Assembly (NCBI GenBank): GCA_003168295.1
Contig: PMST01000703.1
Span: forward strand, 26,888 to 41,038
Length of the DNA: 14,151 bases
Direction: 5' to 3'
Source of the DNA: Actinomycetota bacterium
GTDB taxonomy: Bacteria; Actinomycetota; Actinomycetes; Streptosporangiales; Streptosporangiaceae
Part shown: positions 3 through 14,151 of the stretch, piece by piece
Position numbering within the stretch: position 1 is the first letter of the stretch
Layout of the letters: every line of letters begins with the position of its first letter
Made by a program: the position numbers and the translations under genes
Notes under the pieces: generated by a model
The model's input: only the letters and a program-made list of their open reading frames with translations
Told to the model about the DNA's origin: nothing
Databases searched by the model: none

Positions 3-1106
3 GGGCGCACCCCGTTCTCCCGCGGCGCCGACGGCAAGGCCGTGGTCGGCCCGATGCTGCGCGAGTATCTCATCGGCGAGGCCATGCACGGCCTCGGCAT
101 CCCCACCACGCGGGCGCTCGCGGTGGTCGCCACGGGCGAACGGGTGCTCAGGGAAAGGGCGCTGCCGGGCGCGGTCCTCACCCGGGTCGCCGCGAGCCAC
201 CTGCGCGTGGGCACGTTTCAGTACGCGGCCGCGTCCGGCGACCCGGACCTGCTGCGCGCACTCGCCGACTACGCCATCGCCCGTCACTACCCGGGGGCCG
301 CCGACGCCCCGAACCGCTACCTGGACCTGTACCGGCGGGTGGTCGAGGCGCAGGCGTCGCTGGTGGCCCGGTGGATGCTGGCCGGGTTCGTCCACGGGGT
401 CATGAACACGGACAACACGACGATTTCCGGCGAGACCATCGACTACGGCCCGTGTGCGTTCATGGACGCCTTCGACCCGGCCACGGTGTTCAGCTCCATT
501 GACGACAGCGGCCGCTACGCCTATGGCAACCAGCCGAGGATCCTGCAGTGGAACCTGGCCCGGCTGGCTGAGGCCCTGCTGCCGCTGTTCGACGACAACA
601 GCGAGACCGCGGTCGAGGCGGCCACCGACGTGCTGAACGGGTTCACTGACGCCTACGCGCGGCACTGGGCGCAGGGCATGGCGGCGAAGCTCGGGCTCAC
701 CGCGCCGGACCGGGATCTGGCCGAGGACGTCCTGGAGCTGATGCGGCGGCAGCAGGTCGACTTCACGCGGTTCTTCCGCGCGCTGTCGGCCGGCACCGCG
801 CGCACGCTGTTCACCGAGCCGGAGCCTTTCGACGCCTGGGCCGCCCGTCGCGAGGTCCTGCTGCCCGCGGACCATGCCGCGGCGGCCGCAGCGATGGACC
901 AGGTCAACCCCGTCTACATCCCGCGCAACCACCGTGTCGAGGAGGCGCTTGCGGCGGCGACCGATGGCGAGCTGGGACCGTTCCGCCGTCTCGTCGACGT
1001 CGTCTCCCGCCCCTTCGAGGAACGGCCCGGCCTAGCGGACTACGCCGGCCCGGCCCCCGAAGCGCCCGCGGGCCGCGTCCCGTACGTCACCTACTGCGGC
1101 ACCTGA
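3..1106 (+). CDS. selO: Protein adenylyltransferase SelO (YdiU family), 5'-truncated by window edge
   Basis: SelO is a pseudokinase that transfers AMP from ATP to protein Ser/Thr/Tyr residues and is linked to redox stress. The frame is open from base 3, beginning GRTPFSR, which is the family's motif just after the nucleotide-binding Lys. That Lys and roughly 110 residues therefore lie before the window, and the GTG at 42 is internal. Visible motifs are [19 protein letters not shown], then HGVMNTDN and ETIDYG. The two Asp residues of NTDN and DYG are ten apart, as in characterised SelO, where they bind the metal and ATP. The C terminus is YCGT, with Cys third from the end, the position held by selenocysteine in animal SelO. 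The 3' end is followed by a stem-loop and a convergent gene, so no operon partner is visible downstream. Identification is firm; only the 5' end is missing. Confidence 0.95.
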
Positions 1107-2409: not shown

Positions 2410-2877
2410 TCATCCGGTCTGATTCCCGTGCGTGCGCCGGTACTCGTCCAGTAGCCGGATCACCTGCTCACGGGCCCCGTCCAGGTCGGCGCCCAGCTCC
2501 GACAGCACTTGCGCGGCCACGCCGTCGCCCTGACGGATGAGGCCGAGCAGGATGTGCTCGGTGCCGATGTAGTTGTGACCCAGAGCGATGGATTCCTGCA
2601 GCGCCAGTTCAAGCACCTTCTTTGACTGCGGGGTGAACGGAATGTGCCCGGACGGCGCCTCCTTGCCCCGGCCGGTGACCTCCTCCACCCGCTGCCGCAC
2701 GGCCTCCAGGCCGATCCCCAGTGACTCCAGCGCCCCGGCCGCCACGCCGCCGATGCTTTCATGAGTCAGGGCCAGCAGGACGTGCTCAGTACCCAGGTAG
2801 CTGTGGTCCAGCCTCCTGGCCTCTTCCTGTGCCCGGACCACGGCCCGCCGCGCCCGGTCAGTGAACCGCTCGAACAT
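2410..2877 (-). CDS. Stand-alone Clp N-terminal (double Clp repeat) protein
   Basis: 155 residues that match only the N-terminal substrate/adaptor-binding domain of ClpC/ClpA chaperones. Repeat 1 (about 1-75) opens with MFERFTDRARRAVVRAQEEA and has LDHSYLGTEHVLLAL. Repeat 2 (about 80-150) has SKKVLELALQESIALGHNYI and IGTEHILLGLI. The AAA+ ATPase modules that would follow in ClpC (about 650 residues) are absent, and a stop plus hairpin follow directly, so this is a complete small protein rather than a fragment cut by the window. Such proteins are common in actinobacteria. Plausible roles are binding McsB/MecA-like adaptors or phospho-arginine substrates, or modulating ClpC; none is shown here. 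The ATG at 2877 fits the family start exactly. The preceding 127 bp separates it from the DUF899 operon; I found no clear promoter there. Confidence 0.9.
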   Translation of the reverse strand: MFERFTDRARRAVVRAQEEARRLDHSYLGTEHVLLALTHESIGGVAAGALESLGIGLEAVRQRVEEVTGRGKEAPSGHIPFTPQSKKVLELALQESIALGHNYIGTEHILLGLIRQGDGVAAQVLSELGADLDGAREQVIRLLDEYRRTHGNQTG

Positions 2878-3004: not shown

Positions 3005-3784
3005 TCAGTACTCGTCGGGGAGGCGCATGTTCGGGCCGCCGACTTGCAGGCCGAGTGGGGTTGCTCGTCCCTTCGGCTCCTCCCATGCCTCCTGACGACC
3101 CAGGGCGGTGAGGTCGAGGTACGGGTAGCCGTTGTGGAACTCTTCGATACCGCGGCCGAACGTGGAGTAGGTGTGGTACACCTCCCCGTCGACCTGGAGG
3201 AAGGCGCTGATGCCGGGCCAGTCGCCCCGCAGGGCTTCGGTCCAGGGCATTCCCGCTTCGGTCATCTCCGCTTCTGAGCGATGGAAGATCTGGACCGGCG
3301 CCACCCGATCGTCGACGGTCGCGTGGAAGTCGTAGTTGAAGTCGCTGCCGGCCGAGGAGTACCACGGGAACGTCCACCCCATCCGGTCGCGGAACGCGGC
3401 GATCTTCGCCTGCGGGGCCCGGCTCACCGCGACCAGGGTGGTGCCCCGGACGTGGAGCTGGCGCAGGTGGCCGATGCCGTCGGCGGCCGACGAGCAGCTG
3501 GCGCAGCCGGCGTCGCGCGGGTGCTCGTTCCCGTCAGCGTCGATGTCGTTGATCCACATGAAGTGATGGATGACCAGCTGCGGCCGGCCCTCGAACAGGT
3601 CGAGCAGGCTCACCATCCCGTTGGGGCCCTCGAACGTGTACGGCTTGTCCACTCGAACCATCGGCAGCCGGCGGCGCTCCGCGTTGACCCGGGCGCGGGC
3701 CCGGGTGAGCTCCTTCTCCTGGGCCAGTAGCTCTTGACGGGCCCGCAGCCATTCCGCACGGGAGACGACAGGAGGCAGAGTCAT
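3005..3784 (-). CDS. DUF899 family thioredoxin-fold protein
   Basis: 259 residues, the usual length for DUF899 (COG4312), a thioredoxin-like family of unknown activity. The N-terminal region is charged and probably helical (about 8-40). It is followed by the thioredoxin-like core with YTFEGPNG, LLDLFEGRPQLVIHHFMW and the CxxC-type motif GCASC (Cys94, Cys97), then FPWYSSAGSDFNYDF and the conserved C-terminal YHTYSTFGRGIEEF and YPYLDLT blocks. Start ATG 3784 has AAGGAG (3791-3796) six bases upstream, and that site overlaps the stop of the preceding ArsR gene, so translation is probably coupled. Being the last gene of an SRPBCC-ArsR-DUF899 operon suggests a stress or small-molecule-responsive job, perhaps redox, given the CxxC. 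Family assignment is firm; the biochemical role is unknown. Confidence 0.93.
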   Translation of the reverse strand: MTLPPVVSRAEWLRARQELLAQEKELTRARARVNAERRRLPMVRVDKPYTFEGPNGMVSLLDLFEGRPQLVIHHFMWINDIDADGNEHPRDAGCASCSSAADGIGHLRQLHVRGTTLVAVSRAPQAKIAAFRDRMGWTFPWYSSAGSDFNYDFHATVDDRVAPVQIFHRSEAEMTEAGMPWTEALRGDWPGISAFLQVDGEVYHTYSTFGRGIEEFHNGYPYLDLTALGRQEAWEEPKGRATPLGLQVGGPNMRLPDEY

Positions 3785-3794
3785 CGCATTCTCC

Positions 3795-4142
3795 TTACCT
3801 GGGAGTGTCCAAGCTTTCTACGTGGGCCGCCTCGGCGAGGCGTTTGACGACGGCCAGGCGCTGGTCCCATTGCGCGGCGAGATCAGCCATGGCCCGAGCG
3901 GCCTGATCGAGGCGGCCGGCCTCGACCCGGTAGAGAACCTCTCGACCCTGCTTGCGCCGGCTGACCAGCCCAGCCTCCTCGAGCACCACGAGGTGCTTGG
4001 AGACCGCCTGGCGGGAGAAGGGCACGTGGCCGGCCAGCCAACTGGCGCTGACCTCACCGTGGCTGACCAGCAGATCGAGCACCCGGCGACGAGACGGGTC
4101 GCCGATGGCCGACCACAACTCGTCATCGACCTGCGTCGTCAT
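3795..4142 (-). CDS. ArsR-family winged-helix repressor
   Basis: 115 residues from the ATG at 4142, which overlaps the SRPBCC stop as ATGA, the classic translationally coupled junction. A longer in-frame GTG start at 4196 would add 18 Arg/Pro-rich residues inside the upstream gene and is not favoured. The fold is a single winged helix: LWSAIGDPSRRRVLDLLV (8-25), the recognition helix-turn-helix around SASWLAGHVPFSRQAVSKHL (32-51), and a wing with SRRKQGREVLYRV (61-73). The ELCVCDL-type metal-binding cysteines of true arsenic/cadmium sensors are missing, and there is no Cys at all, so this is one of the non-metal ArsR regulators often paired with SRPBCC proteins. It probably represses its own operon through the direct repeat at 4655-4672. 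Confidence 0.92.
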   Translation of the reverse strand: MTTQVDDELWSAIGDPSRRRVLDLLVSHGEVSASWLAGHVPFSRQAVSKHLVVLEEAGLVSRRKQGREVLYRVEAGRLDQAARAMADLAAQWDQRLAVVKRLAEAAHVESLDTPR

Positions 4143-4585
4143 CCCGGCTGGCGCGCCACGGACACGCCGGCGAGGCGGTCCAGGAAGTCGCCCCACCCCT
4201 CCCGGTGATCGTCGGCATAGCGCTGCTTCTCCGCGTCGGGCCAGTCGCGCAGATCATGGCCGCTTTCGGTCACCCGGAGACGAGTCTGCTCGTCGCCTTC
4301 GGGCGTCAGCGTGAACTCGACGAGCATCGAGTTGCCCGCCACCGGCTCCTCCTCGCGGGGATGGTTCCAGCGGAACGAGAAGCGAGTCGGCGGATCGACC
4401 GTCTCCACGACGACGGGGCCCCCCTGGTCGCCGAAGTGCATATAGCCGTGCGCGCCGGGTTCGACGACGAGTTCCACCCGGTCGGCGAACCACTTGGTCA
4501 TCTGGTCGGGCTCGGTAACGATGCGCCACACCACCTCCGCCGGTGCCTCGATCAGGACCTCCCGCTCAATCATGAGACCTGCCAT
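4139..4585 (-). CDS. SRPBCC / AHSA1-like domain protein
   Basis: 148 residues from ATG 4585, chosen because AAGGAG (4595-4600) sits nine bases upstream and because homology begins at once with MIEREVLIEAPAEVVWRIVT. The frame is open further upstream to 5005, but that stretch covers the promoter and lacks domain character. The helix-grip (START-like) fold of the AHSA1 family is recognisable: VVWRIVTEPDQMTKWFADRV, then FRWNHP, LVEFTLTPEGDEQTRLRVTE and a C-terminal helix with HREGWGDFLDRL. These proteins bind hydrophobic small molecules in a cavity; the ligand here is unknown. It is the first gene of a three-gene operon with ArsR and DUF899, which suggests that ligand sensing, control and response are encoded together. 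Confidence 0.92.
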   Translation of the reverse strand: MAGLMIEREVLIEAPAEVVWRIVTEPDQMTKWFADRVELVVEPGAHGYMHFGDQGGPVVVETVDPPTRFSFRWNHPREEEPVAGNSMLVEFTLTPEGDEQTRLRVTESGHDLRDWPDAEKQRYADDHREGWGDFLDRLAGVSVARQPG

Positions 4586-4636
4586 CAGAATCCGCTCCTT
4601 GCCTAAGTGCGCCACTGGTCGTTTGAACTGCAACCA

Positions 4637-4665
4637 ACGGTAGCACTTAAGGATCAGATGTGCAA
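4637..4665 (-). promoter_or_regulatory. Predicted promoter of the SRPBCC-ArsR-DUF899 operon
   Basis: On the minus strand, TTGCAC (4660-4665) and TACCGT (4637-4642) are separated by exactly 17 bp, close to the actinobacterial vegetative consensus. They lie about 50 bases upstream of the SRPBCC start. Predicted from sequence only. Confidence 0.55.
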
Positions 4666-4672
4666 CAGATGT
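4655..4672. promoter_or_regulatory. Direct repeat overlapping the -35 box, candidate ArsR operator
   Basis: CAGATGT occurs at 4655-4661 and again at 4666-4672, 11 bp apart (one helical turn), straddling the predicted -35 hexamer. An additional inverted pair, AACTGCAA (4626-4633) and TTGCAGTT (4673-4680), flanks the whole promoter. ArsR repressors usually bind over or near the promoter of their own operon, so either element could be the operator. Confidence 0.45.
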
Positions 4673-4749
4673 TTGCAGTTGCGTCAGGCCGGCGCCGCTC
4701 GGTCGATAGCGAAGAGAGGGGAGTGAGGGTAAACGCATCTTCGACTGGC

Positions 4750-5376
4750 TCAACGAGTAGATCCCGGCCTGACGGAAAGACCGTGCCGGCGGCCAAATCG
4801 CCTCATGAGCCACAGCAGGAGAAGGACGACGGAGAAGTAGCACGCCGCCACAAGGTAGTTCACCCAGTTCGCTGGGGCCTGCACCGCAGTCCAGATGTTG
4901 ACCACCATGCCAGCTAGGAGGCCGCCGAAGAAGAGCAGTCGGGTCATGCGTGCGGTGGACCAGGCATATTGGCCAAGGGGCCAGGCCGCAAGGAACAGGG
5001 ACCAAGTCAGGTACAGGTAGTTCGGCCAGTGCCCTGGTGCCCGTACCGCGGTCCGGATGTCCCAGGCCACGAGCGCCAGGCCAGCCGCAAAGAGCACGCC
5101 GAGCAGGAGGGCCAAGGGCGCGGGCGGCCGGTGCCGGGTCCGGCCGGACGTCCTGGCGGCTCCCCGCAGGGTATCCGCCGCGTAGCCCAGCATGCGGACG
5201 GCGCGGTACGGAGCGAACCTGATCTCGGGATCATGCAGGATAGCGGGCAGCTCGGCCACCCATTCCCGGTAGCGATCTTTACCGGTCCCGCGCGGCAGGC
5301 GGCGGCAAGCGCAGCCCACCAGGTACTCCCCGATGCGCAGCAGCGCGCGCTCTCCCCTCAACCCAGGCTTCCTCAA
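4750..5376 (-). CDS. Four-helix membrane protein with internal duplication
   Basis: 208 residues, function not recognised. A cytoplasmic N-terminal part of about 85 residues contains RYREWVAELPAILHDP and a YRAVRMLGYAADTLRG stretch, a pattern I associate with uncharacterised actinobacterial membrane proteins. Four hydrophobic helices follow, near 87-105, 119-135, 147-161 and 172-191. Helices 1-2 and 3-4 look like a duplication, since IRTAVRAPGHWPNYL (107-121) matches IWTAVQAPANWVNYL (161-175) 54 residues later. The start is TTG 5376, overlapping the PadR stop as TTGA, with GGGAG six bases upstream. A second TTG at 5361 sits in the same context because of a 15-bp duplication and is an equally possible start. 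Coupling to PadR suggests this is the gene PadR controls. Confidence 0.75.
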   Translation of the reverse strand: MRKPGLRGERALLRIGEYLVGCACRRLPRGTGKDRYREWVAELPAILHDPEIRFAPYRAVRMLGYAADTLRGAARTSGRTRHRPPAPLALLLGVLFAAGLALVAWDIRTAVRAPGHWPNYLYLTWSLFLAAWPLGQYAWSTARMTRLLFFGGLLAGMVVNIWTAVQAPANWVNYLVAACYFSVVLLLLWLMRRFGRRHGLSVRPGSTR

Positions 5377-5763: not shown

Positions 5764-6483
5764 ATGCGACTCATGGATGTCCGGACTGACCTCGCCCCCA
5801 CGGGCACGTTGCGAGCCTCGATCAACCTGGGCAACCCGGTGCTGGCTCAAGGCACGCCGGCGGCCCCGAGCGGCGTGACCGTCGATATCGCCCGTGAGCT
5901 GGCCGCTCGGCTTGGCGTCCCGGTGGAGCTGGTCTGTTTCGACGCGGCCCGGGAGTCGTTCGAGGCGATGAAGGCGGGCCGCGCCGATATCTGCTTCCTG
6001 GCCATCGACCCGGCCCGCGAGGAGACGGTGGCGTTCACCCCGCCGTACGCGGTGATCGAGGGCGTATTCGCCGTGCCGCCGGACTCACCCCTTACCTCGA
6101 GCGCCGACGTGGACCGCCCCGGTGTGCGCGTCGCGGTCAACCAAGGGTCCGCCTACGATCTGTTCCTCTCCCGCACCCTGGCCCACGCCGAGGTGGTCCG
6201 CGGCGACGAAGGTACCACGGTCTTTACCGAACGGCAGTTGGAGGCCGTGGCCGGCATCCGCCAGCCGCTCGAGGTGTTCGCCGCCGCCCATCCCGGCATT
6301 CGGCTGCTCGAACCGCGGTTCATGGAGATCCGGCAGGCCGTGGGCACCACCCGGACCCGCCGCGACGAAACCCTCGGCTTCCTGCGCACGTTCGTCGAGG
6401 AGCTCAAGGCCGATGGGTTCATCACCGAGGCCTTGCGCCGGGCCGGCCGTCGCGACGCGACCGTCGCCCCACCCGCACCGTAG
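5764..6483 (+). CDS. Family 3 solute-binding-fold protein without signal peptide
   Basis: 239 residues of the periplasmic-binding-protein type II fold (SBP_bac_3, amino-acid-type). Lobe 1 has LRASINLGNP and PSGVTVDIARELAARLGVPV, then ESFEAMKAGRADICFLAIDP and VAFTPPY. Lobe 2 follows with GVRVAVNQGSAYDLFLSR, and the chain returns at QLEAVAGIRQPLE and FLRTFVEELKADGFI. No N-terminal hydrophobic segment or lipobox is present: the fold begins within about 15 residues of the start. It should therefore be cytoplasmic, unlike a transporter receptor, and no permease or ATPase gene is adjacent. It may act as a ligand sensor or enzyme-like binder. ATG 5764 is used; ATG 5773 is an alternative. It is transcribed divergently from PadR across 79 bp. 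Confidence 0.85.
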   Translation: MRLMDVRTDLAPTGTLRASINLGNPVLAQGTPAAPSGVTVDIARELAARLGVPVELVCFDAARESFEAMKAGRADICFLAIDPAREETVAFTPPYAVIEGVFAVPPDSPLTSSADVDRPGVRVAVNQGSAYDLFLSRTLAHAEVVRGDEGTTVFTERQLEAVAGIRQPLEVFAAAHPGIRLLEPRFMEIRQAVGTTRTRRDETLGFLRTFVEELKADGFITEALRRAGRRDATVAPPAP

Positions 6484-6584: not shown

Positions 6585-8084
6585 GTGCCGCAAGCACAGT
6601 CAGCTCAGGCAGCCGCGGCGATCTCACCGACTCGCGCTGAAGACTTCCCCGGCTGGTATCAGGAAGTCGTCCGGGCGGCCGAGCTGGCCACCATGGCCCA
6701 CGTGCGGGGCTGCATGGTCATCCGCCCGTGGGGGTACCGGATGTGGGAGCTCATGCAGGCCGAGCTCGACCTCCAGATTCGGGCCAGGCGTCACGACAAT
6801 GTGTATTTCCCGCTGTTTATCCCGGTCAGCTATCTCCAGGCCGAGGCCGAGCACGTCGAGGGTTTCGCCAAGGAAATGGCCGTCGTGACCCACCACCGGC
6901 TGGAGAGCGTGGACGGCGTCCTTACCCCGGCCGGACCGCTAGAGGAGCCGGTCGTCGTCCGGCCGACCTCGGAGACGATTTTCGGGAAGTCCATGGCGGA
7001 ATGGATCCAGTCGTACCGCGACCTGCCGATGCGCCTCAACCAGTGGTGCAACGTCGTGCGGTGGGAACTGCGCCCGCGCGTCTTCCTGCGGACCACGGAG
7101 TTCCTCTGGCAGGAAGGGCACACGGCCCACGAGTCGGAGGCATCCGCGCTGGCGGACACGCTCAACGCCCACGAGATGTACCGGACCTTCGCGGAAGACT
7201 TCCTCTGCCTGCCCACGGTGCCGGGGGAAAAGTCCGAGAGCGAGCGCTTCCCGGGCGCGGTGAAGACGTTCACCATCGAGGCGATGATGCAGGACGGCCG
7301 CGCCCTGCAGGCGGGCACGTCGCACTATCTCGGCCAGAACTTCGCTCGCGCCGCCGACATCAGGTTCCTTGACCGGGACAACCAGCGCCAGCACGTGTAC
7401 ACCACGTCGTTCGGCATCTCGACCCGTCTTATCGGCGCCGTCATCATGACCCACGGCGACGACGACGGCCTGGTCCTGCCCCCGAAGATCGCCCCGGCTC
7501 AGGTCGTCATCGTGCCGATCCTGCGCGGCGGGGGCAGCGACGACATCCTGGCCTACGCCGAGGAAGTGGCGAGCGAACTGGCCCGGCCCGGCGGCCTGGC
7601 CCCGGACCGGGTCCTAGTGGAGCGATCTGAGCGCCGGGCCAACGACGTCCGGTGGAGTTACATCAAGAAGGGCGCTCCCGTCATCATCGAGGTCGGGCAG
7701 CGGGATGCGGCCAGCCGCACCGTCACCTACCGGGTCCGGCTGGATCACCGGAACGTCCGCTCGGTCCCGTTGGCCGGGGCGACGGAGGCGATGACGAGCG
7801 CGCTCTCCGAAGTGCACGAAGGGCTGCTGATCCAGGCGCGGACCCGGCTGCGGGACGGTATCCGCTCGGACCTCACCAACTTCGCGGAGATGCGGAAGTT
7901 CTTCACCGGCGGCCGCGGCCTGGTGCTGGCCCCCTGGTGCGGTGACCCGGAGTGTGAGGCGGCCCTGAAGCCGCTGGCGGTCAGCGTCCGGTGTATCCCC
8001 GAGCACCTGGAGGCATCGGGTGACGTGTGCATCGTCGACGGGCGCCCCCGGCGGTTCTCAGCCCTCTTCGGCCAGTCTTACTGA
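6585..8084 (+). CDS. proS: Prolyl-tRNA synthetase, archaeal/eukaryotic type (ProS type 3)
   Basis: Class II synthetase that attaches proline to tRNA-Pro. 499 residues. GTG start at 6585 with AAGGGA (6571-6576) eight bases upstream. The catalytic core has VVVRPTSETIFGKSM (123-137), motif 2 FLRTTEFLWQEGHTAH (167-182) and motif 3 with YTTSFGISTRLIGAVIMTHG (272-291). The anticodon-binding domain follows (about 303-410), then the C-terminal zinc-binding-like domain ending in the diagnostic terminal Tyr. The editing insertion between motifs 2 and 3 found in bacterial-type ProRS (about 565-570 residues) is absent. In the zinc domain Cys452 and Cys457 are present, but the later CxxC pair reads CIVD (482-485), so one ligand is Asp. 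It converges with aat, overlapping it by 27 bp. It may be the sole housekeeping enzyme or a second copy tied to the neighbouring peptide operon; the window cannot tell. Confidence 0.95.
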   Translation: MPQAQSAQAAAAISPTRAEDFPGWYQEVVRAAELATMAHVRGCMVIRPWGYRMWELMQAELDLQIRARRHDNVYFPLFIPVSYLQAEAEHVEGFAKEMAVVTHHRLESVDGVLTPAGPLEEPVVVRPTSETIFGKSMAEWIQSYRDLPMRLNQWCNVVRWELRPRVFLRTTEFLWQEGHTAHESEASALADTLNAHEMYRTFAEDFLCLPTVPGEKSESERFPGAVKTFTIEAMMQDGRALQAGTSHYLGQNFARAADIRFLDRDNQRQHVYTTSFGISTRLIGAVIMTHGDDDGLVLPPKIAPAQVVIVPILRGGGSDDILAYAEEVASELARPGGLAPDRVLVERSERRANDVRWSYIKKGAPVIIEVGQRDAASRTVTYRVRLDHRNVRSVPLAGATEAMTSALSEVHEGLLIQARTRLRDGIRSDLTNFAEMRKFFTGGRGLVLAPWCGDPECEAALKPLAVSVRCIPEHLEASGDVCIVDGRPRRFSALFGQSY

Positions 8085-8852
8085 CAGCAGCCGCCGCGCG
8101 GGGAGTGGCTGGGCCGGTAGCACGCTGCGCCGGGCCGAGGCGGTCAGCAGCGGCAGGTAATCCTCTCGCGGCATTAGTTCGGCGCCAAGCGACCGCAGGA
8201 ATGGGCTGTCCCACTGTGCGTCGATCAGCGTGCCGCCGGCCTCGGCGAATCGCGCGCCCATATCCGCGACCGCAATTCGCGCCGCGTTGGGATGCCGGTT
8301 GAACATCGAATCTCCGCTGAGCACGGAGCCCACGCCGACGCCGAGGGCGCCTCCGATCAGATCGCCGTCCTGCCAGACCTCGATGCTGTGGGCCCAGCCT
8401 TCCTCGTGCAAATGGACCATGCTTTCCAGCAGCGCGTCGGTGAACCAGCGCGGCTCGCGGCCCGCCCGGCATTCCTGCGCCACCCGCCGGAACGAAACGT
8501 TCGCTGTCGTTCGTTCCCGGCCGTGCCGCAGCTGTTTCCTGACATTATGGCCAAGGTGAATATCCCCGGCTTTGATCACCGGCCGGGGGTCGGGTGACCA
8601 CCAGGCCACCCGGTACGGGTCATCTCCGGTGCTGCCCACGAGGCCGATCACGCCGTCCGACACCTGATCCTCATACCGGAACTCGTTGACGTCGCGAGCG
8701 TAGTCATCGGGCGCCGGGAACGGGAAAATCCCGTTTTTGTACGCGCCGAGAACGCTGCCCGGGCTCAGGTCCGCGCCGAAGGCGACCGGGGCGCCCTGGG
8801 CGCCCGGTGCGATCGTGAAGGATTCCCAGTCCGGATAGTGGCGGACCGCCAT
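8058..8852 (-). CDS. aat: Leucyl/phenylalanyl-tRNA-protein transferase homologue (Aat)
   Basis: Aat enzymes move Leu or Phe (or Met) from aminoacyl-tRNA to the alpha-amino group of an N-terminal Arg or Lys. 264 residues. Family motifs are DLSPGSVLGAYKNGIFPFP (28-46), AWWSPDPRPV (83-92), GWAHSIEVW (152-160), GDSMFNRHPNAARIA (180-194) and LIDAQWDSPFLRSLGA (209-224). The Asp and Gln of DAQ (211, 213) match the catalytic pair of E. coli Aat, but the Glu of its GESMF motif is Asp181 here. About 30 extra residues (50-82), many acidic, separate the first two motifs compared with E. coli. ATG 8852 lies 88 bp inside the end of the NRPS gene, so the two are co-transcribed and probably translationally coupled. 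That linkage suggests a biosynthetic role, adding an amino acid to the NRPS-bound residue, rather than N-degron tagging. The role is inferred. Confidence 0.9.
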   Translation of the reverse strand: MAVRHYPDWESFTIAPGAQGAPVAFGADLSPGSVLGAYKNGIFPFPAPDDYARDVNEFRYEDQVSDGVIGLVGSTGDDPYRVAWWSPDPRPVIKAGDIHLGHNVRKQLRHGRERTTANVSFRRVAQECRAGREPRWFTDALLESMVHLHEEGWAHSIEVWQDGDLIGGALGVGVGSVLSGDSMFNRHPNAARIAVADMGARFAEAGGTLIDAQWDSPFLRSLGAELMPREDYLPLLTASARRSVLPAQPLPARRLLSVRLAEEG

Positions 8853-11830
8853 AACGGGCTCTTCAGGTACCCGGTTGCCATCAGCCGGCCGATGTTGAGA
8901 TCAAGGAGTTTCTCATCGACCGGCGGGAAAGCTATGCTGCTGCCCCTTAGCGCCGCCTCGGCGTGTGACCGTGTGTAAGCCGGGAAAATGTGTTCAAGAT
9001 ACATTTCCGCCACCGTGAGCCCGGGTTCTTCGCAGTGGTCGACGAAGAGCGGGACGAAGGGGGTCATCGGGTGGCCGGGGCCTTCTGCGGCATTCTTAAG
9101 CAGCTCATCGACCCATTCGGGGTAAGGTATCGTTCTTATCGCATATCCGTACTGGCGCAGCCGGTCGACCAGCGATCCGAGCAGCGCGTATTGCGGGCTG
9201 GCTAGATGATAGGTGACCCCGGCCGCTTCGGCATGTGAAGAGATGTATCCTATGGCGGCCGCGCATATATCGACGGGCACGAAGTCGAGCGGCAGGTCGA
9301 TATCCGGCGCGACGCCCTTGTCTGTTATGAACCTTATCAGCGCGCACATTTCGGTAGCGGTGTTCCAGGCGCCGATGTGCTGATCACCGACAATGTCCAG
9401 GGGCCGGTAGATGGCCACCGGCAAGCCCGCGCGGCTGGCGTTCCGCAAGAGTTCCTCGGCGACGAACTTAGTCTCTATGTAGCCCATGCAAAGCCGGTCG
9501 GCATAAGCGAGGGGCGTGTCCTCGGTTACCTCGTGCACGCCCATGGCGCCGAAACCTGCGAGCACGGTAGTAGTGGAAACGTAGTGAATGGGTATGCCGC
9601 GGTACAGTCCGGCCAGGCGGATTAGTTCCCGGGTGCCGGTCACGTTGGCTGCCCGCAGATCCTGGTACGGGTAGACGAAGTTCACCGTCGCGCCGGCATG
9701 GTGAATGACGTCGATGGTTCGCGCGAGCTCGCTGAACGTGCCGGGGTCCAGGCCCAGATTCGGCTCGGCGAGATCTCCGGCCAGCGGCACAATGCGATCG
9801 GTGGTCAGGCCGTCGAGCTCATAGCGCTCGGCGGCCTGCGCGATGCGCAGCCGTGCGTCCGGGGCGCTGTCGGCGCGGACCAGGCAGTGCACCCGCGCGG
9901 TGGTGGCGGTCAGCAGCTCGCGCAGCAGGTAAAGCCCGAGGAAGCCGGTCGACCCGGTGAGGAGTATCTCGCGCGGTCGCCTCCAGTCCGGGGGCGGACC
10001 GGCGTCCAGGTGGACCGGATCAGTCAGTCTGGCCTCGGCGGTGAAGTTGACCCGCGGATCCGCGCCGCGGGCGGTGAGCCTTCCCGCGCGGGCGTCCTGG
10101 GTGGCCTTCGAGAAACCCCGCAGGGTCGGGTCGCGGAGCAGGCGGCGGGTGAGCGGGCGGACGTAGTTCGGCCTGATCCCGAACATGACGCGCACGTGCG
10201 CCAGCATCTCCGCGGCGATCAGCGAGTTGCCGCCTAGGGCGAAGAAGTCGTCGTCGAGGCTCACCCGTCCCGTCGTGAGCATCCTGGACCACAGGTGCGA
10301 CATGCCCGCCTGTACCGGTGTATATCCCCCGGAGAGGCCTCCGCTGGCCACGGTCACCGGACGCGGCAGCGCCCGCCGGTCGATCGTTCCCTGCGGCGTC
10401 AGCGGCATCTGGTCTATCGCGATGAACACGGCCGGAATCATGAAGCTTGGCACCCGGGCAGCTAGAAAGGTCCGCAGGCTCGCGACTGACGGCAGCTCCC
10501 GCGTCTCGGCGTCAGCCGATCCGGGATGGCGCCGGGTGTAGTACGCGGCGAGCTGCCGGTTACCCGGGCCAAAGTCGTGGGCGATGACCGCCGCCTCGGC
10601 GATGGCGGGGTGGCCCACCAGGGCACTCTCGATCTCGGCCGGTTCGACCCGGAAGCCGCGGATCTTCAGCTGATGGTCCACCCGGCCGATGACCTCGAGG
10701 TTGTGATCGCCGTGCCAGCGCCCAAGATCTCCGGTGCGATACATCCTGCTCCCGGGCGAGGCGTCGTGCGGGTTCGGCAGGAACAGCCCGGCCGTGAGCT
10801 CTGGCCGGCCGAGATACCCTCGGGCGACGCCGCAGCCGCCGATGTAGATCTCGCCCACCGTGTCGGCGGGCACCTGGTTCAGGTCCTGGTCGAGAACGAG
10901 CACTTGCGCGTGCCGGACCGGCTTGCCTACCGGTACCGAGGCGGCCGGGGCCAGCAGTTTCTCGTCGACCTCGTACAGCGTCGACGTGATCGTCGTCTCG
11001 GTGAGCCCGTAGGCATTGAGCAGTCTGGCTCCGGGCACTGCTCGAAGGGCCGCGGCGCAGTCCGCGGGGCTCGCCCGGTCGCCGCCGGTGATCATGAGCC
11101 GAACGCTTCGCAGCCGCTCGTCTTTCGGTTCGGCGAGCGCGACCAGCTGGTGCCAGTACGCCGGGACCAAGTCGATGACGCTGACCTGCTCCGCCGCCAG
11201 GTAACCGAGCAGCTCGGTGGGCGCGATCGTCCCCGGGGGCGGCAGCATCAGGGTCGCTCCGCAGGTCAGCGTGACCAGGATCTGCTCTAGCGACGTGTCA
11301 AAGCCCAGGGAAGCCAGCTGCAGAACCCGGTCGTCAGGGGAGATCTGGTATTCGCGCGATAGTTCGGCGCTGACACAGGCCAGCGAGCCGTGGCTGACGG
11401 CGACGGCTTTGGGGTGGCCGGTGGAGCCTGACGTGTAGATGACGTACGCCATGTCCGCTGCCTGCAGGCTGACCCCGGGAGCCGTGGCCGGCCGGTCCGC
11501 GAGCTCGGCGGCGCACTCGTCGATCAGCAGCAGCCTTGCGTCAGTTTCCGCGAAGGTTCCCGCGTTTGCGCGGCTCACCAGGATGACCTGCGGGCGGGCT
11601 TCGGCGCACATCTGGCGCAGCCGTACGGCCGGAAGCGACGGATCCAACGGCAGGTACGCACCGCCCGCCTTCAGGGTCGCCAGCAGGCAGCGAATCGTCT
11701 CTACGCCGCGCTCGAGGCAGACTCCGACCAGGGTTTCCGGGCCGACGCCCATGTCCGCCAGATGGTGCGCCAGCTTATTGGCCGACTGGTTCAGCTGACG
11801 ATAGGTCAGCTGGGTCCGGCCGGAGACCAC
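8765..11830 (-). CDS. NRPS-like adenylation-thiolation-reductase protein (A-T-R)
   Basis: Activates an amino acid, holds it as a thioester and releases it reductively as an aldehyde or alcohol. 1021 residues from GTG 11830. A domain (1-490): TSGSTG (133-138), FDTS (177-180), NAYGLTETT (272-280), YRTGD (364-368), GRVDHQLKIRGFRV (382-395). T domain: LGGNSL with Ser536. Thioester-reductase domain (about 620-990): NAD(P)H motif TGSTGFLG (625-632), HHAGATVNF, then YVSTTT and catalytic YIETK (784-788). There is no condensation domain. A-domain pocket by alignment to PheA: D, T, E, D, I, G, A, I, T; the acidic residues at 239 and 278 suggest a basic substrate. The A10 motif is PLTPQGTIDR, so the catalytic Lys is Thr482. 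Recognisable A-domain sequence (FGEQAWRHPHW) continues in frame upstream of the GTG, and the frame stays open to a TAA at 11993-11995, yet no ATG, GTG or TTG occurs there, so the true start is uncertain. It overlaps aat by 88 bp. Confidence 0.88.
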   Translation of the reverse strand: MVSGRTQLTYRQLNQSANKLAHHLADMGVGPETLVGVCLERGVETIRCLLATLKAGGAYLPLDPSLPAVRLRQMCAEARPQVILVSRANAGTFAETDARLLLIDECAAELADRPATAPGVSLQAADMAYVIYTSGSTGHPKAVAVSHGSLACVSAELSREYQISPDDRVLQLASLGFDTSLEQILVTLTCGATLMLPPPGTIAPTELLGYLAAEQVSVIDLVPAYWHQLVALAEPKDERLRSVRLMITGGDRASPADCAAALRAVPGARLLNAYGLTETTITSTLYEVDEKLLAPAASVPVGKPVRHAQVLVLDQDLNQVPADTVGEIYIGGCGVARGYLGRPELTAGLFLPNPHDASPGSRMYRTGDLGRWHGDHNLEVIGRVDHQLKIRGFRVEPAEIESALVGHPAIAEAAVIAHDFGPGNRQLAAYYTRRHPGSADAETRELPSVASLRTFLAARVPSFMIPAVFIAIDQMPLTPQGTIDRRALPRPVTVASGGLSGGYTPVQAGMSHLWSRMLTTGRVSLDDDFFALGGNSLIAAEMLAHVRVMFGIRPNYVRPLTRRLLRDPTLRGFSKATQDARAGRLTARGADPRVNFTAEARLTDPVHLDAGPPPDWRRPREILLTGSTGFLGLYLLRELLTATTARVHCLVRADSAPDARLRIAQAAERYELDGLTTDRIVPLAGDLAEPNLGLDPGTFSELARTIDVIHHAGATVNFVYPYQDLRAANVTGTRELIRLAGLYRGIPIHYVSTTTVLAGFGAMGVHEVTEDTPLAYADRLCMGYIETKFVAEELLRNASRAGLPVAIYRPLDIVGDQHIGAWNTATEMCALIRFITDKGVAPDIDLPLDFVPVDICAAAIGYISSHAEAAGVTYHLASPQYALLGSLVDRLRQYGYAIRTIPYPEWVDELLKNAAEGPGHPMTPFVPLFVDHCEEPGLTVAEMYLEHIFPAYTRSHAEAALRGSSIAFPPVDEKLLDLNIGRLMATGYLKSPLWRSATIRTGNPSRSHRAPRAPRSPSART

Positions 11831-12353
11831 CGCGGCCCAGTGCGGGTGCCGCCATGCCTGCTCACCGAATAGCTGGTGAACATATCGTGCGTTATGTTCG
11901 GGCGAAATTGGATAACCTGCTTCCGCGCCGCGCCTTGATGCGTCTCGCTGTACCGGTTCCTTAGCTCCCCAGGCGCTGACCGGAGCAATGTCTTAATGCC
12001 CGCTAAGAGTGGAGCTGACACGCTTTACGGCCAACAAACGTGGGCAGCGACGGGGTGGCCGACCGAAAAGGCGGGCGGATTGTAATCATAAAAAATGATA
12101 AATAGCTACAACCGCCAGTCTGGTCAGCCAGAATCTGAAAATCCCCCGCAGATCGAGAAAACTCGCGGAAAATAGGGAAAGAGTAATGTGATCTTCGTAA
12201 CAGGCCGGCCCCGGAAACTAACATAAACAACTAATTAGGCTTACTGGGGCTACTGAGGGACATGCGCTAAGTGCTTCGCGGTGGTGTTTCCGGGGGAAGA
12301 TGGGGTTAGGGGCAGGGCGTGCACTGCTGAGGACAGCGTGCCGGAGCGGGCCG
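11831..12353. other. AT-rich divergent intergenic region
   Basis: 523 bp between the NRPS-aat operon and the signalling gene. By hand count, 12061-12240 is about 46% G+C, far below the flanking genes. Bases 11831-11992 continue the NRPS frame without an ordinary start codon. Elements seen: ATCAT-AAAAA-ATGAT (12085-12099), whose minus strand gives a -10-like TATGAT pointing at the NRPS but with a poor -35; CTGG-TCAG-CCAG (12120-12131); and a plus-strand TAGGCT (12236-12241) that could be a -10 for the signalling gene, again with a weak -35. No RNA gene was recognised. Short frames inside have no domain character. It most likely holds divergent promoters and regulator sites. Confidence 0.55.
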
Positions 12354-14151
12354 GTGAGCATGGGGGATGCGTTGACATCGCGGCGGAATGTGCTGGTGGG
12401 TTATTTCATCTGGATGGCGTTGCTCATCGCGGTGTACTTCGGGCGGCCGGGCGTGCGGACCGAGGCGTGGGGCCTGATCGGGCTGACCGGGGTGCTGGCC
12501 ATCGTGGCCGGGGTGGTCATCAACCGGCCTGCCCGTAGGACGCCGTGGCTGCTGCTGGCCGCCGCGAACCTGAGCTTCGCCGTTGGCCAGGTCAGCTTCC
12601 TGGTCCTGACCGAGATCGTGAAGGTGACGGTTCCGTTTCCGTCCTTCACGGACGGTTTCTTCCTGGCGCAGTATCCGCTGGCCGCTGTGGGTTTGCTGAT
12701 CTTTATCTGGTGGCGTACCCCGGACCGGGACCGGCGCAGCCTGATCGATGCGCTGACCCTGACCGTCGGGCTGGCGCTGTTGTCCTGGATCTACCTGATC
12801 CTTCCGTATGTACATAACCCCGCGCTGTCGTGGCTGCAGAAAAGCGTCGCGGTCGGCTATCCGCTCGGCGATGTGCTTCTCCTGGCCATGATCGCCCGGC
12901 TGATCGTGCCCGGGACGGCGCGGACCAGGTCCGTCCAGTTGCTGATCCTCGGCACCGTCGGGATGCTGTGCTCCGATGTGTCGTTCGGCGCGATCCAGCT
13001 GTACGGGACGTTTCACAACGGCACAGTGGTCGACCTGGGCTGGGCGGTCATCTACCTCGCCTGGGGGGCGGCCGCCCTGCACCCGAGCATGGTTGAGCTC
13101 ACCCAGCCGGTGGCCCGGCTGCCGGCCGTGACCTCGCCGTTCCGGCTGACCGTGCTGATGCTCGCGTCGCTGATCGCCCCGGTCGTGTTGTTCATCCAGT
13201 CGGTCACCGGCCGCAACCACGACGACGGCGTGATCGCGGTGTTCTCCGCCGTGCTGTACCTGCTGGTGCTCTCGCGGCTGTGGGACGTGGCGGCCTCGCA
13301 CCGCCGCGCCCTGAGCCGGGAGCGCGCCGTCCGGGTGGCGGGCGCCGCCCTGGCCTCGGCGGTGACCGTGCCGGAGGCCGCCGCCACGGTCAGGGATGCG
13401 GCGGTCGCCCTGATCGACCCGGGCTCGCCGCGCGAGGCCCTGCTCGTGGTGCGCCACGACGGTGCGCTCCGCGCCGTGGCCAGCGGGTCCGCTGATTCGC
13501 TGCGGCTGGATCAGCTGGCCGGGCTGATCGAGACGTGCGTGCCGCTGCTGACCGGGTCGCAGCCGCTTTTCCTGCCCGCGGCCAGGCTCGGCGCCCAGGC
13601 GGGCGTGCTGCTCCCCGGCTGTGACGGGATGTTGCTGTGCCCGGTCACGCTCGACGACCGGCCGTCCGGTGATCCGCTGATCGCGGTGCTCGCGGTGTTC
13701 GGTGGGCAGCGGACGCTGGCGGATTTGTCGGCGACGCTGGAGATCCTGGCGCAGCAGGCCGCCCTGGCGGTGGAGCGGGTCATGCTGAGTGAGGAGGTCA
13801 TCCGGCGGGGCAGCGAGGCGTATTTCCGGACCCTGGTGCAGGACACCTCGGACGCCATCTTGATCATCGCCGACGACGGGATGGTCCGGTACGCGACCCC
13901 GTCCGCCGCGAGCATCTTCGGCAACGTCATCGTGGAGGGCGTCCATCTCTGGGACCTGGTCGCCGACGGGGAGCGGGAGGACCTGGTGCGCGCGCTGGCG
14001 CGGATGCGGGAGCACGCGGGCCGCCGGTCGTATTACGAGGAGATGCGGATCACCCGCCGGGACGGGGTCAGCGTCCGGGTTCAGGTCCGGTGCAGTGACT
14101 TGCGGAGGGAGAACACGGTCGGGGGGCTCGTGCTGACGTTGCGGGATGTGA
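12354..14151 (+). CDS. Membrane-anchored GAF-PAS signalling protein, 3'-truncated by window edge
   Basis: Frame open to the last base; 599 residues are seen. GTG 12354 has GGAG seven bases upstream. ATG 12360 and the in-frame ATG 12300 (with GGGGGA very close) are alternatives. About ten hydrophobic helices fill the first 330 residues, for example VLVGYFIWMALLIAVYF near 13-29, a pair around DALTLTVGLALLSWIYLILP, and VIAVFSAVLYLLVLSRLW as the last. A linker (SRERAVRVAGAALASAV) and a GAF-like domain follow, up to ILAQQAALAVERV. A PAS domain then starts at YFRTLVQDTSDAILIIADDG and ends with GGLVLTLRDV at the window edge. In actinomycetes this order usually continues into GGDEF and EAL domains (cyclic-di-GMP turnover), less often a kinase or PP2C phosphatase; the output domain lies outside. 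It is divergent from the NRPS operon and might sense envelope or product state. Confidence 0.85.
   Translation, partial: MSMGDALTSRRNVLVGYFIWMALLIAVYFGRPGVRTEAWGLIGLTGVLAIVAGVVINRPARRTPWLLLAAANLSFAVGQVSFLVLTEIVKVTVPFPSFTDGFFLAQYPLAAVGLLIFIWWRTPDRDRRSLIDALTLTVGLALLSWIYLILPYVHNPALSWLQKSVAVGYPLGDVLLLAMIARLIVPGTARTRSVQLLILGTVGMLCSDVSFGAIQLYGTFHNGTVVDLGWAVIYLAWGAAALHPSMVELTQPVARLPAVTSPFRLTVLMLASLIAPVVLFIQSVTGRNHDDGVIAVFSAVLYLLVLSRLWDVAASHRRALSRERAVRVAGAALASAVTVPEAAATVRDAAVALIDPGSPREALLVVRHDGALRAVASGSADSLRLDQLAGLIETCVPLLTGSQPLFLPAARLGAQAGVLLPGCDGMLLCPVTLDDRPSGDPLIAVLAVFGGQRTLADLSATLEILAQQAALAVERVMLSEEVIRRGSEAYFRTLVQDTSDAILIIADDGMVRYATPSAASIFGNVIVEGVHLWDLVADGEREDLVRALARMREHAGRRSYYEEMRITRRDGVSVRVQVRCSDLRRENTVGGLVLTLRDV

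What the first reader, a model, noticed from the sequence alone, without database searches (positions are those of the whole stretch)
8058..11992. A-T-R NRPS fused by overlap to an Aat gene: candidate tRNA-dependent peptide-aldehyde pathway
Seen: an A-T-R protein with no condensation domain, whose last 88 bp contain the start of an Aat (Leu/Phe-tRNA-protein transferase) gene on the same strand. Known: Aat forms a peptide bond from aminoacyl-tRNA onto an N-terminal Arg or Lys; reductase domains release thioesters as aldehydes. Inference: the A domain loads a basic amino acid on Ser536, Aat adds Leu/Phe (one or more) to its free amino group in place of a condensation domain, and the R domain releases a short peptide aldehyde, like the protease inhibitor leupeptin (acyl-Leu-Leu-argininal). 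From memory, to be verified, an Aat-plus-NRPS tRNA-dependent system was proposed in the S. lividans 66 genome paper (Cruz-Morales et al., 2013). This locus would be a further, differently organised member.
Basis: partly seen in the sequence, partly recalled or inferred. Interest (0 to 1): 0.88.

Follow-up and report, generated by a model that had tools for sequence, protein, structure and literature searches.

The report
tRNA-fed peptide-aldehyde operon beside c-di-GMP gene
Two overlapping genes look able to build a small arginine aldehyde by borrowing an amino acid from a tRNA, a route already described in Streptomyces, and most of the related gene pairs examined sit next to a c-di-GMP signalling gene, which suggests the product is tied to cell signalling.

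Summary
In detail: an A-T-R synthetase without a condensation domain (8765-11830, minus; frame open to 11992) overlaps the start of a leucyl/phenylalanyl-tRNA transferase gene, Aat (8058-8852), by 88 bp. It is of the published livipeptin kind (PMC10548850), so the core idea is not new. The 88-bp overlap is ordinary: 27 of 64 ATR-linked loci have a 4-bp stop/start overlap, 6 are fused. New here: (1) ATR-linked Aats have Asp where E. coli Aat has the acceptor-anchoring Glu156 (64 of 64; 0 of 25 Aats with a GGDEF-EAL gene but no NRPS). (2) No conserved N-acyltransferase was found, so a free-amine dipeptide aldehyde that can close to a pyrazinone is as likely as a leupeptin-type inhibitor. (3) A membrane-GAF-PAS-GGDEF-EAL gene lies near Aat in 60 of 64 ATR loci; the window carries its 5' part at 12360-14151. 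Of 50 sampled loci without ATR, 25 have a different GGDEF-EAL family upstream of Aat, so the pairing probably arose twice (AU p 0.002). Functions are inferred, not assayed.

The parts
8058..8852 (-). Aat-type leucyl/phenylalanyl-tRNA transferase of the NRPS-linked clade: D181 (=E. coli E156), D211 (=D186), Q213 (=Q188), W136 (=W111), F45 (=W49)
8765..11830 (-). A-T-R C-minus NRPS-like protein from its first start codon GTG (1021 aa); frame open back to 11992
10811..11863 (-). adenylation core (PF00501); DTEDIGAIT at nine recalled specificity positions
10172..10273 (-). carrier domain (PF00550) with the conserved serine (codon 10223-10225, Ser536)
9251..9961 (-). thioester reductase (PF07993; TIGR01746) with TGSTGFLG and YIETK motifs
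8765..8852 (-). 88-bp overlap of the two reading frames; a variant of the 4-bp stop/start overlap seen in 27 of 64 ATR-linked loci
11993..12359 (.). divergent intergenic region, G+C down to 0.45 against about 0.6-0.75 around it; no sigma-70-type match found
12360..14151 (+). 5' part of a membrane (about 9 helices)-GAF-PAS-(GGDEF-EAL) protein; ORF from 12300, likely start 12360; runs off the window before any GGDEF

Best explanation
A two-gene operon for a tRNA-dependent dipeptide aldehyde, of the livipeptin kind. The A domain loads a basic residue, most likely arginine, on the carrier serine; the recruited Aat transfers Leu or Phe (donor not settled) from aminoacyl-tRNA to the free amine of the tethered residue, in place of a condensation domain; the R domain releases the dipeptide as an aldehyde. 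With no acyltransferase seen in the locus, the product keeps a free amine and probably closes in part to a dihydropyrazinone and then a pyrazinone of the arglecin type. Its making or use is tied to a neighbouring membrane c-di-GMP enzyme. Shown by sequence: gene content, order, conservation, residues, clade. Inferred: every reaction, the substrates, the product and the c-di-GMP role.
For: Domain order without C or TE. R domain just upstream of Aat on the same strand in 64 of 114 Aat loci, 6 of them fused. The ATR-linked Aats lie in one clade, SH-aLRT 97. Asp at E. coli position 156 in 64 of 64 linked loci and in 120 of 120 listed top homologues, against Glu in 25 of 25 loci with GGDEF-EAL but no NRPS; E156 and Q188 anchor the basic N-terminal residue in a model of E. 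coli Aat (PMC4964394, passage). TIGR00667 score under its cut-off of 143.55 in 3 of 3 linked Aats tested (window 131.5, L001 115.8, L052 137.5), over it in 3 of 3 unlinked ones (168-171). A code DTED in 62 of 63 linked loci and 119 of 120 listed proteins; a Glu four residues after the binding Asp holds Lys in Pls_A, and Glu204 orients Arg in ApnA A1 (PMC11253843, passage; that these match position 239 is my inference from spacing). Livipeptin reconstitution needed both proteins and was lost with RNase (PMC10548850, read). Pyrazinones arise by closing of dipeptide aldehydes, and arglecin and argvalin occur in Streptomyces (PMC4210894, PMC11212599, passages). GGDEF-EAL neighbour in 60 of 64.
Against: No biochemistry. 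The specificity positions are recalled, and the code string was found in no paper. In the livipeptin work the two genes without the acyltransferase gave no inhibitory fraction, which fits a pyrazinone but also fits no product. PMC11212599 (passage) takes arglecin and argvalin in its strain as by-products of an antipain-type NRPS, which needs no Aat. Donor-side residues differ from E. coli (M144, F153, L170, F173; no Trp at position 49 in 64 of 64), though M144 also varies in NRPS-free Aats and Trp49 is present in only 4 of the 25 remaining loci; Leu/Phe may not be the donor. The Glu-to-Asp change is one event on the tree, so its match with NRPS linkage counts once; L048 has Asp with no A domain in its 19.9 kb, L051 has Glu with an A-domain gene nearby. 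The locus nearest to the window among those held, L001 (73% identical Aat), lacks the GGDEF-EAL neighbour, as do L047 and L179; L044 is cut. The A domain's true start is unclear.
Confidence: 0.72

Rival explanations
1. Acylated leupeptin-type protease inhibitor, as proposed for livipeptin, with the N-acyltransferase encoded elsewhere in the genome.
For: Livipeptin activity needed Sli0885, an N-acyltransferase (PMC10548850, read). The same core enzymes are present.
Against: No acyltransferase other than Aat among the 12 window genes scanned. In the neighbour clustering no family besides Aat/ATR and GGDEF-EAL is shared by more than 23 ATR loci, and that one lies antisense over Aat, probably a shadow frame. 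Downstream genes vary; the 5 scanned were LamG-like, MFS, beta-lactamase-like and two unassigned. Most neighbours were not scanned, and the window's genome is not held.
Confidence: 0.3
2. Aat is an N-degron enzyme that happens to sit beside an A-T-R gene making a simple amino aldehyde.
For: Aat keeps D186, Q188 and W111.
Against: Below the TIGR00667 cut-off (131.5 against 143.55) where unlinked Aats pass it; Asp156 in 64 of 64; own clade; fusions in 6 of 64.
Confidence: 0.06
3. The GGDEF-EAL neighbour is inherited gene order without function for the pathway.
For: The ATR-linked GGDEF-EAL genes may be one lineage (one clade not rejected, p 0.199), so the link may count as few events; L001, L047 and L179 lack it.
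Against: Kept through two arrangements (49 opposite strand, 11 same strand); chance adjacency 1-2% from EAL counts in 7 genomes; strong sensor match in 61 of 71 genomes with an Aat match against 3 of 323 without; a different GGDEF-EAL family pairs with Aat without ATR.
Confidence: 0.35
4. The convergent ProRS (6585-8084) is part of the pathway: dedicated tRNA charging or self-protection.
For: Family I ProRS (TIGR00408 437.2 against 437), with no strong match in 5 of 6 relatives' genomes; it overlaps the Aat end by 27 bp.
Against: No ProRS hit of this family in any of the other 113 loci; opposite strand; in L046 a sole, presumably housekeeping ArgRS lies beside Aat.
Confidence: 0.05

Closest known systems
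Livipeptin system of Streptomyces lividans 66 (Sli0883-0885; PMC10548850)
   Same: A-PCP-R without C or TE, adjacent L/F transferase, predicted Arg; actinobacterial; fusions known
   Different: No N-acyltransferase, O-methyltransferase or butyryl-CoA dehydrogenase found here; a GGDEF-EAL neighbour, and the paper's text holds no 'c-di-GMP'; an MbtH domain in many relatives but not in the window. The livipeptin sequences themselves were not in hand
Housekeeping L/F transferase (Aat, N-degron; E. coli 2Z3K, 2DPS)
   Same: Family, D186/Q188/W111
   Different: E156 is Asp, W49 is Phe, other donor-pocket residues, below the TIGR00667 cut-off
Dipeptide-aldehyde NRPSs giving pyrazinones (AusA, phevalin; arglecin and argvalin as products)
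   Same: R-domain release; free-amine dipeptide aldehyde expected
   Different: Second residue from tRNA by Aat rather than from a further NRPS module
Leupeptin/antipain-type peptide aldehydes
   Same: Arg-aldehyde warhead expected
   Different: No capping enzyme or C domains found

Membership tests
Livipeptin-type tRUE plus C-minus NRPS | A-PCP-R protein lacking C and TE | tested here: met
   Pfam order PF00501, PF13193, PF00550, PF07993; no C or TE family at E 0.001
Livipeptin-type tRUE plus C-minus NRPS | Adjacent L/F transferase of a clade apart from housekeeping Aat | tested here: met
Livipeptin-type tRUE plus C-minus NRPS | A domain specific for arginine | tested here: inconclusive
   Code DTEDIGAIT, acids at 239 and 278; positions recalled, no assay
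Livipeptin-type tRUE plus C-minus NRPS | N-acyltransferase in the cluster | tested here: not met
   None among 12 scanned window genes; not seen as a conserved neighbour
Livipeptin-type tRUE plus C-minus NRPS | tRNA-dependent product | not testable with these tools
   needs enzymes
Housekeeping N-degron Aat | TIGR00667 equivalog score | tested here: not met
   131.5 against cut-off 143.55; controls L059, L066, L004 score 168-171
Housekeeping N-degron Aat | Acceptor residues E156 and Q188 | tested here: not met
   Q kept, E is D
Leupeptin-type acyl peptide aldehyde | N-terminal cap enzyme | tested here: not met
   none in the window genes scanned; a gene elsewhere in the genome is not excluded
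Arglecin-type pyrazinone pathway | Free-amine Leu-Arg aldehyde closing to a pyrazinone | not testable with these tools
   chemistry from PMC4210894 and PMC11212599 passages

The most novel reading that the evidence does not exclude
A three-gene signalling module: a membrane c-di-GMP enzyme with a GAF sensor is paired with a tRNA-fed two-enzyme pathway whose free-amine Leu/Phe-Arg aldehyde or arglecin-type pyrazinone is a developmental signal or self-directed protease inhibitor gated by c-di-GMP; Aat has been paired with c-di-GMP enzymes at least twice, with and without an NRPS.
Probability: 0.3. Interest if true: 0.85.

Novelty: new variant of a known kind. Interest (0 to 1): 0.62.

Why it matters
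The pathway kind is published, but by that paper its product had not been characterised chemically. These data make it testable: the genes that recur are ATR, Aat and a GGDEF-EAL gene, not an acyltransferase, which points to an arglecin-type pyrazinone or free aldehyde and to c-di-GMP control. One residue (156) marks Aats that work with NRPS proteins and gives a genome-mining marker and a mutational test. The GGDEF-EAL-Aat pairs without an NRPS link the N-degron enzyme to second-messenger signalling; in three searches I met no paper on this (listings only, 15 of 59 shown).

Tried and rejected
Dedicated aminoacyl-tRNA synthetase: ProRS lies convergent in the window and ArgRS in L046, but that ArgRS is the only one found in its genome and none of the other 113 loci has a ProRS hit; rejected as a shared feature.

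Assembly artefact at the ATR 5' end: many relatives at 63-79% identity carry an N-terminal MbtH domain ending where the window's frame opens; since all 17 closest listed proteins (P0121-P0137) also lack PF03621, a lineage loss is likelier than a chimera.

Full report

Precedent. PMC10548850 (text parts 1-4 of 5 read) describes livipeptin: an A-PCP-R protein, an L/F transferase and an N-acyltransferase; all three were needed for a protease-inhibiting fraction, and RNase abolished it. It also reports fusions and a separate clade. The 2013 paper is not held.

Sampling. I fetched 40 places, best-scoring first, and 68 of the 80 rows listed (of the other 12, one was already in hand and 11 were pieces or weak or cut matches). 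With L001-L005 and the window this makes 114 Aat loci. The other matches were not fetched, so the NRPS-free set is not a random sample.

Linkage. 64 of 114 loci, the window included, have an R domain just upstream of Aat on the same strand. The junction is a 4-bp overlap in 27, fused in 6, a longer overlap in 11 (two of these, 205 and 463 bp, rest on a doubtful start choice) and a gap in 20. In the window ATGG stands where those 27 have ATGA or GTGA, so the ATR frame runs on for 28 codons. The 88-bp overlap is therefore a minor variant of translational coupling.

The transferase. On a tree with columns 156 and 49 left out, Asp156 marks one clade of 77 rows (SH-aLRT 97): all 64 ATR loci, 10 of 11 loci with another A-domain gene nearby, and L048, L170 (cut) and L186; the other 37 rows have Glu; the tree needs one change. 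L051 has an A-domain neighbour but Glu. Position 49 is Trp in 23 of 25 Aats with GGDEF-EAL but no NRPS, in 0 of 64 ATR-linked ones and in 4 of the 25 others, so it is a weaker mark. The window, L001 and L052 Aats score below the TIGR00667 cut-off, while three unlinked Aats (L059, L066, L004) pass it. In E. coli, E156 and Q188 are thought to hold the basic acceptor residue, W49 stacks on the terminal adenosine, and M144, F153, L170, F173 and I185 form the amino-acid pocket (PMC4964394, passages). A shorter acid with the rest of the acceptor pair kept fits a basic acceptor presented differently, as on a carrier arm; that is inference.

The synthetase. At nine recalled specificity positions the window reads DTEDIGAIT; DTED begins the code in 62 of 63 ATR loci and 119 of 120 listed proteins. 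Glutamates hold Lys in Pls_A and orient Arg in ApnA A1 (PMC11253843, passages); by spacing they match the window's Glu. The carrier serine is S in 183 of 183 and the reductase YxxxK lysine K in 178 of 183. An MbtH domain (PF03621) is absent from the 17 closest listed proteins and present in all of the next 11 (P0138-P0148).

Product. No acyltransferase besides Aat is among the 12 window genes scanned, and none appears as a conserved neighbour; of downstream genes in relatives, 5 were scanned and a few, so a scattered one is possible. A dipeptide aldehyde with a free amine closes to a pyrazinone (PMC4210894, passage), and arglecin and argvalin are known from Streptomyces (PMC11212599 and PMC12144821, passages). 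PMC11212599 takes them as by-products of an antipain-type NRPS in its strain. I met no paper assigning dedicated genes to arglecin (listings and passages). An arglecin-type product is my prediction.

The c-di-GMP gene. A homologue of the window's 12360-14151 gene lies within 9 kb of Aat in 60 of 64 ATR loci, the window included, 49 on the opposite strand and 11 on the same strand; L001, L047 and L179 lack it and L044 is cut. The three copies scanned carry GGDEF and EAL domains, and the GGDEF motif is present in each full gene called. The two closest listed relatives of the window's piece, 91% and 93% identical, have both domains. Seven ATR genomes hold 5-8 EAL genes each, so chance adjacency is 1-2%. 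In the 394 genomes of the family of G349, a strong match to the sensor part (E up to 1e-135) is in 61 of 71 with an Aat match and 3 of 323 without; at E 1e-30 it is 63 of 71 and 44 of 323. The genomes are related, so Fisher values overstate the case. Ten exact longest-contig lengths above 10 kb are shared by the ATR and GGDEF-EAL tables, read by eye, which suggests linkage in metagenomes too.

A second pairing. Of 50 loci without ATR, 25 have a GGDEF-EAL gene on the same strand upstream of Aat, 54-700 bp apart by tblastn. In a tree of 24 of these, 22 ATR-linked copies and 15 paralogues from 5 genomes, the 24 form a family of their own (SH-aLRT 99). Holding both Aat-linked families together as one clade is rejected (p-AU 0.002), while one clade for the ATR-linked copies is not (0.199). 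I had seen the first tree before that test, and 7 long rows were left out of it. Two independent pairings of Aat with c-di-GMP enzymes argue for a functional tie, unknown so far.

Verdict. A real operon of a known kind, with a sharper molecular marker, a different likely product and a signalling neighbour that I have not seen described. The decisive tests are biochemical.

Noticed in passing
L053, L054, L056-L059, L061-L076, L078, L079, L082 (25 loci): Aat without any NRPS hit sits downstream of a GGDEF-EAL gene on the same strand, a probable operon linking the N-degron enzyme to c-di-GMP.
   Followed up: partly
window 6585-8084: Family I prolyl-tRNA synthetase convergent with and overlapping the Aat end by 27 bp; five of six relatives' genomes searched gave only weak matches (E 1e-7 or worse) or none.
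   Followed up: partly
L049 11837-15163, L172, L176, L177: Aat of the Asp156 clade with an opposite-strand A-domain gene downstream; in L049 it is TubC-C-A-T.
   Followed up: partly
L050 10143-11933: A-T didomain protein without R directly upstream of an Asp156 Aat.
   Followed up: no
L180-L183, L185: Asp156 Aats with an A-domain gene nearby in other arrangements; a possible further class.
   Followed up: no
L140, L142, L159, L160, L168, L169: ATR and Aat fused in one frame, as reported in the livipeptin paper; all six have the GGDEF-EAL gene upstream on the same strand.
   Followed up: partly
window 11830-11992: The A-domain N-terminus lies upstream of the first start codon; the MbtH domain of many relatives is missing.
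   Followed up: partly
window 2410-2877: 155-aa protein matching only the Clp N-terminal repeat family (PF02861).
   Followed up: no
window 42-1106, 3005-3784, 3795-4196, 4139-5005, 5764-6483: SelO, DUF899, HTH regulator, AHSA1 and solute-binding (SBP_bac_3) proteins; ordinary neighbours.
   Followed up: no
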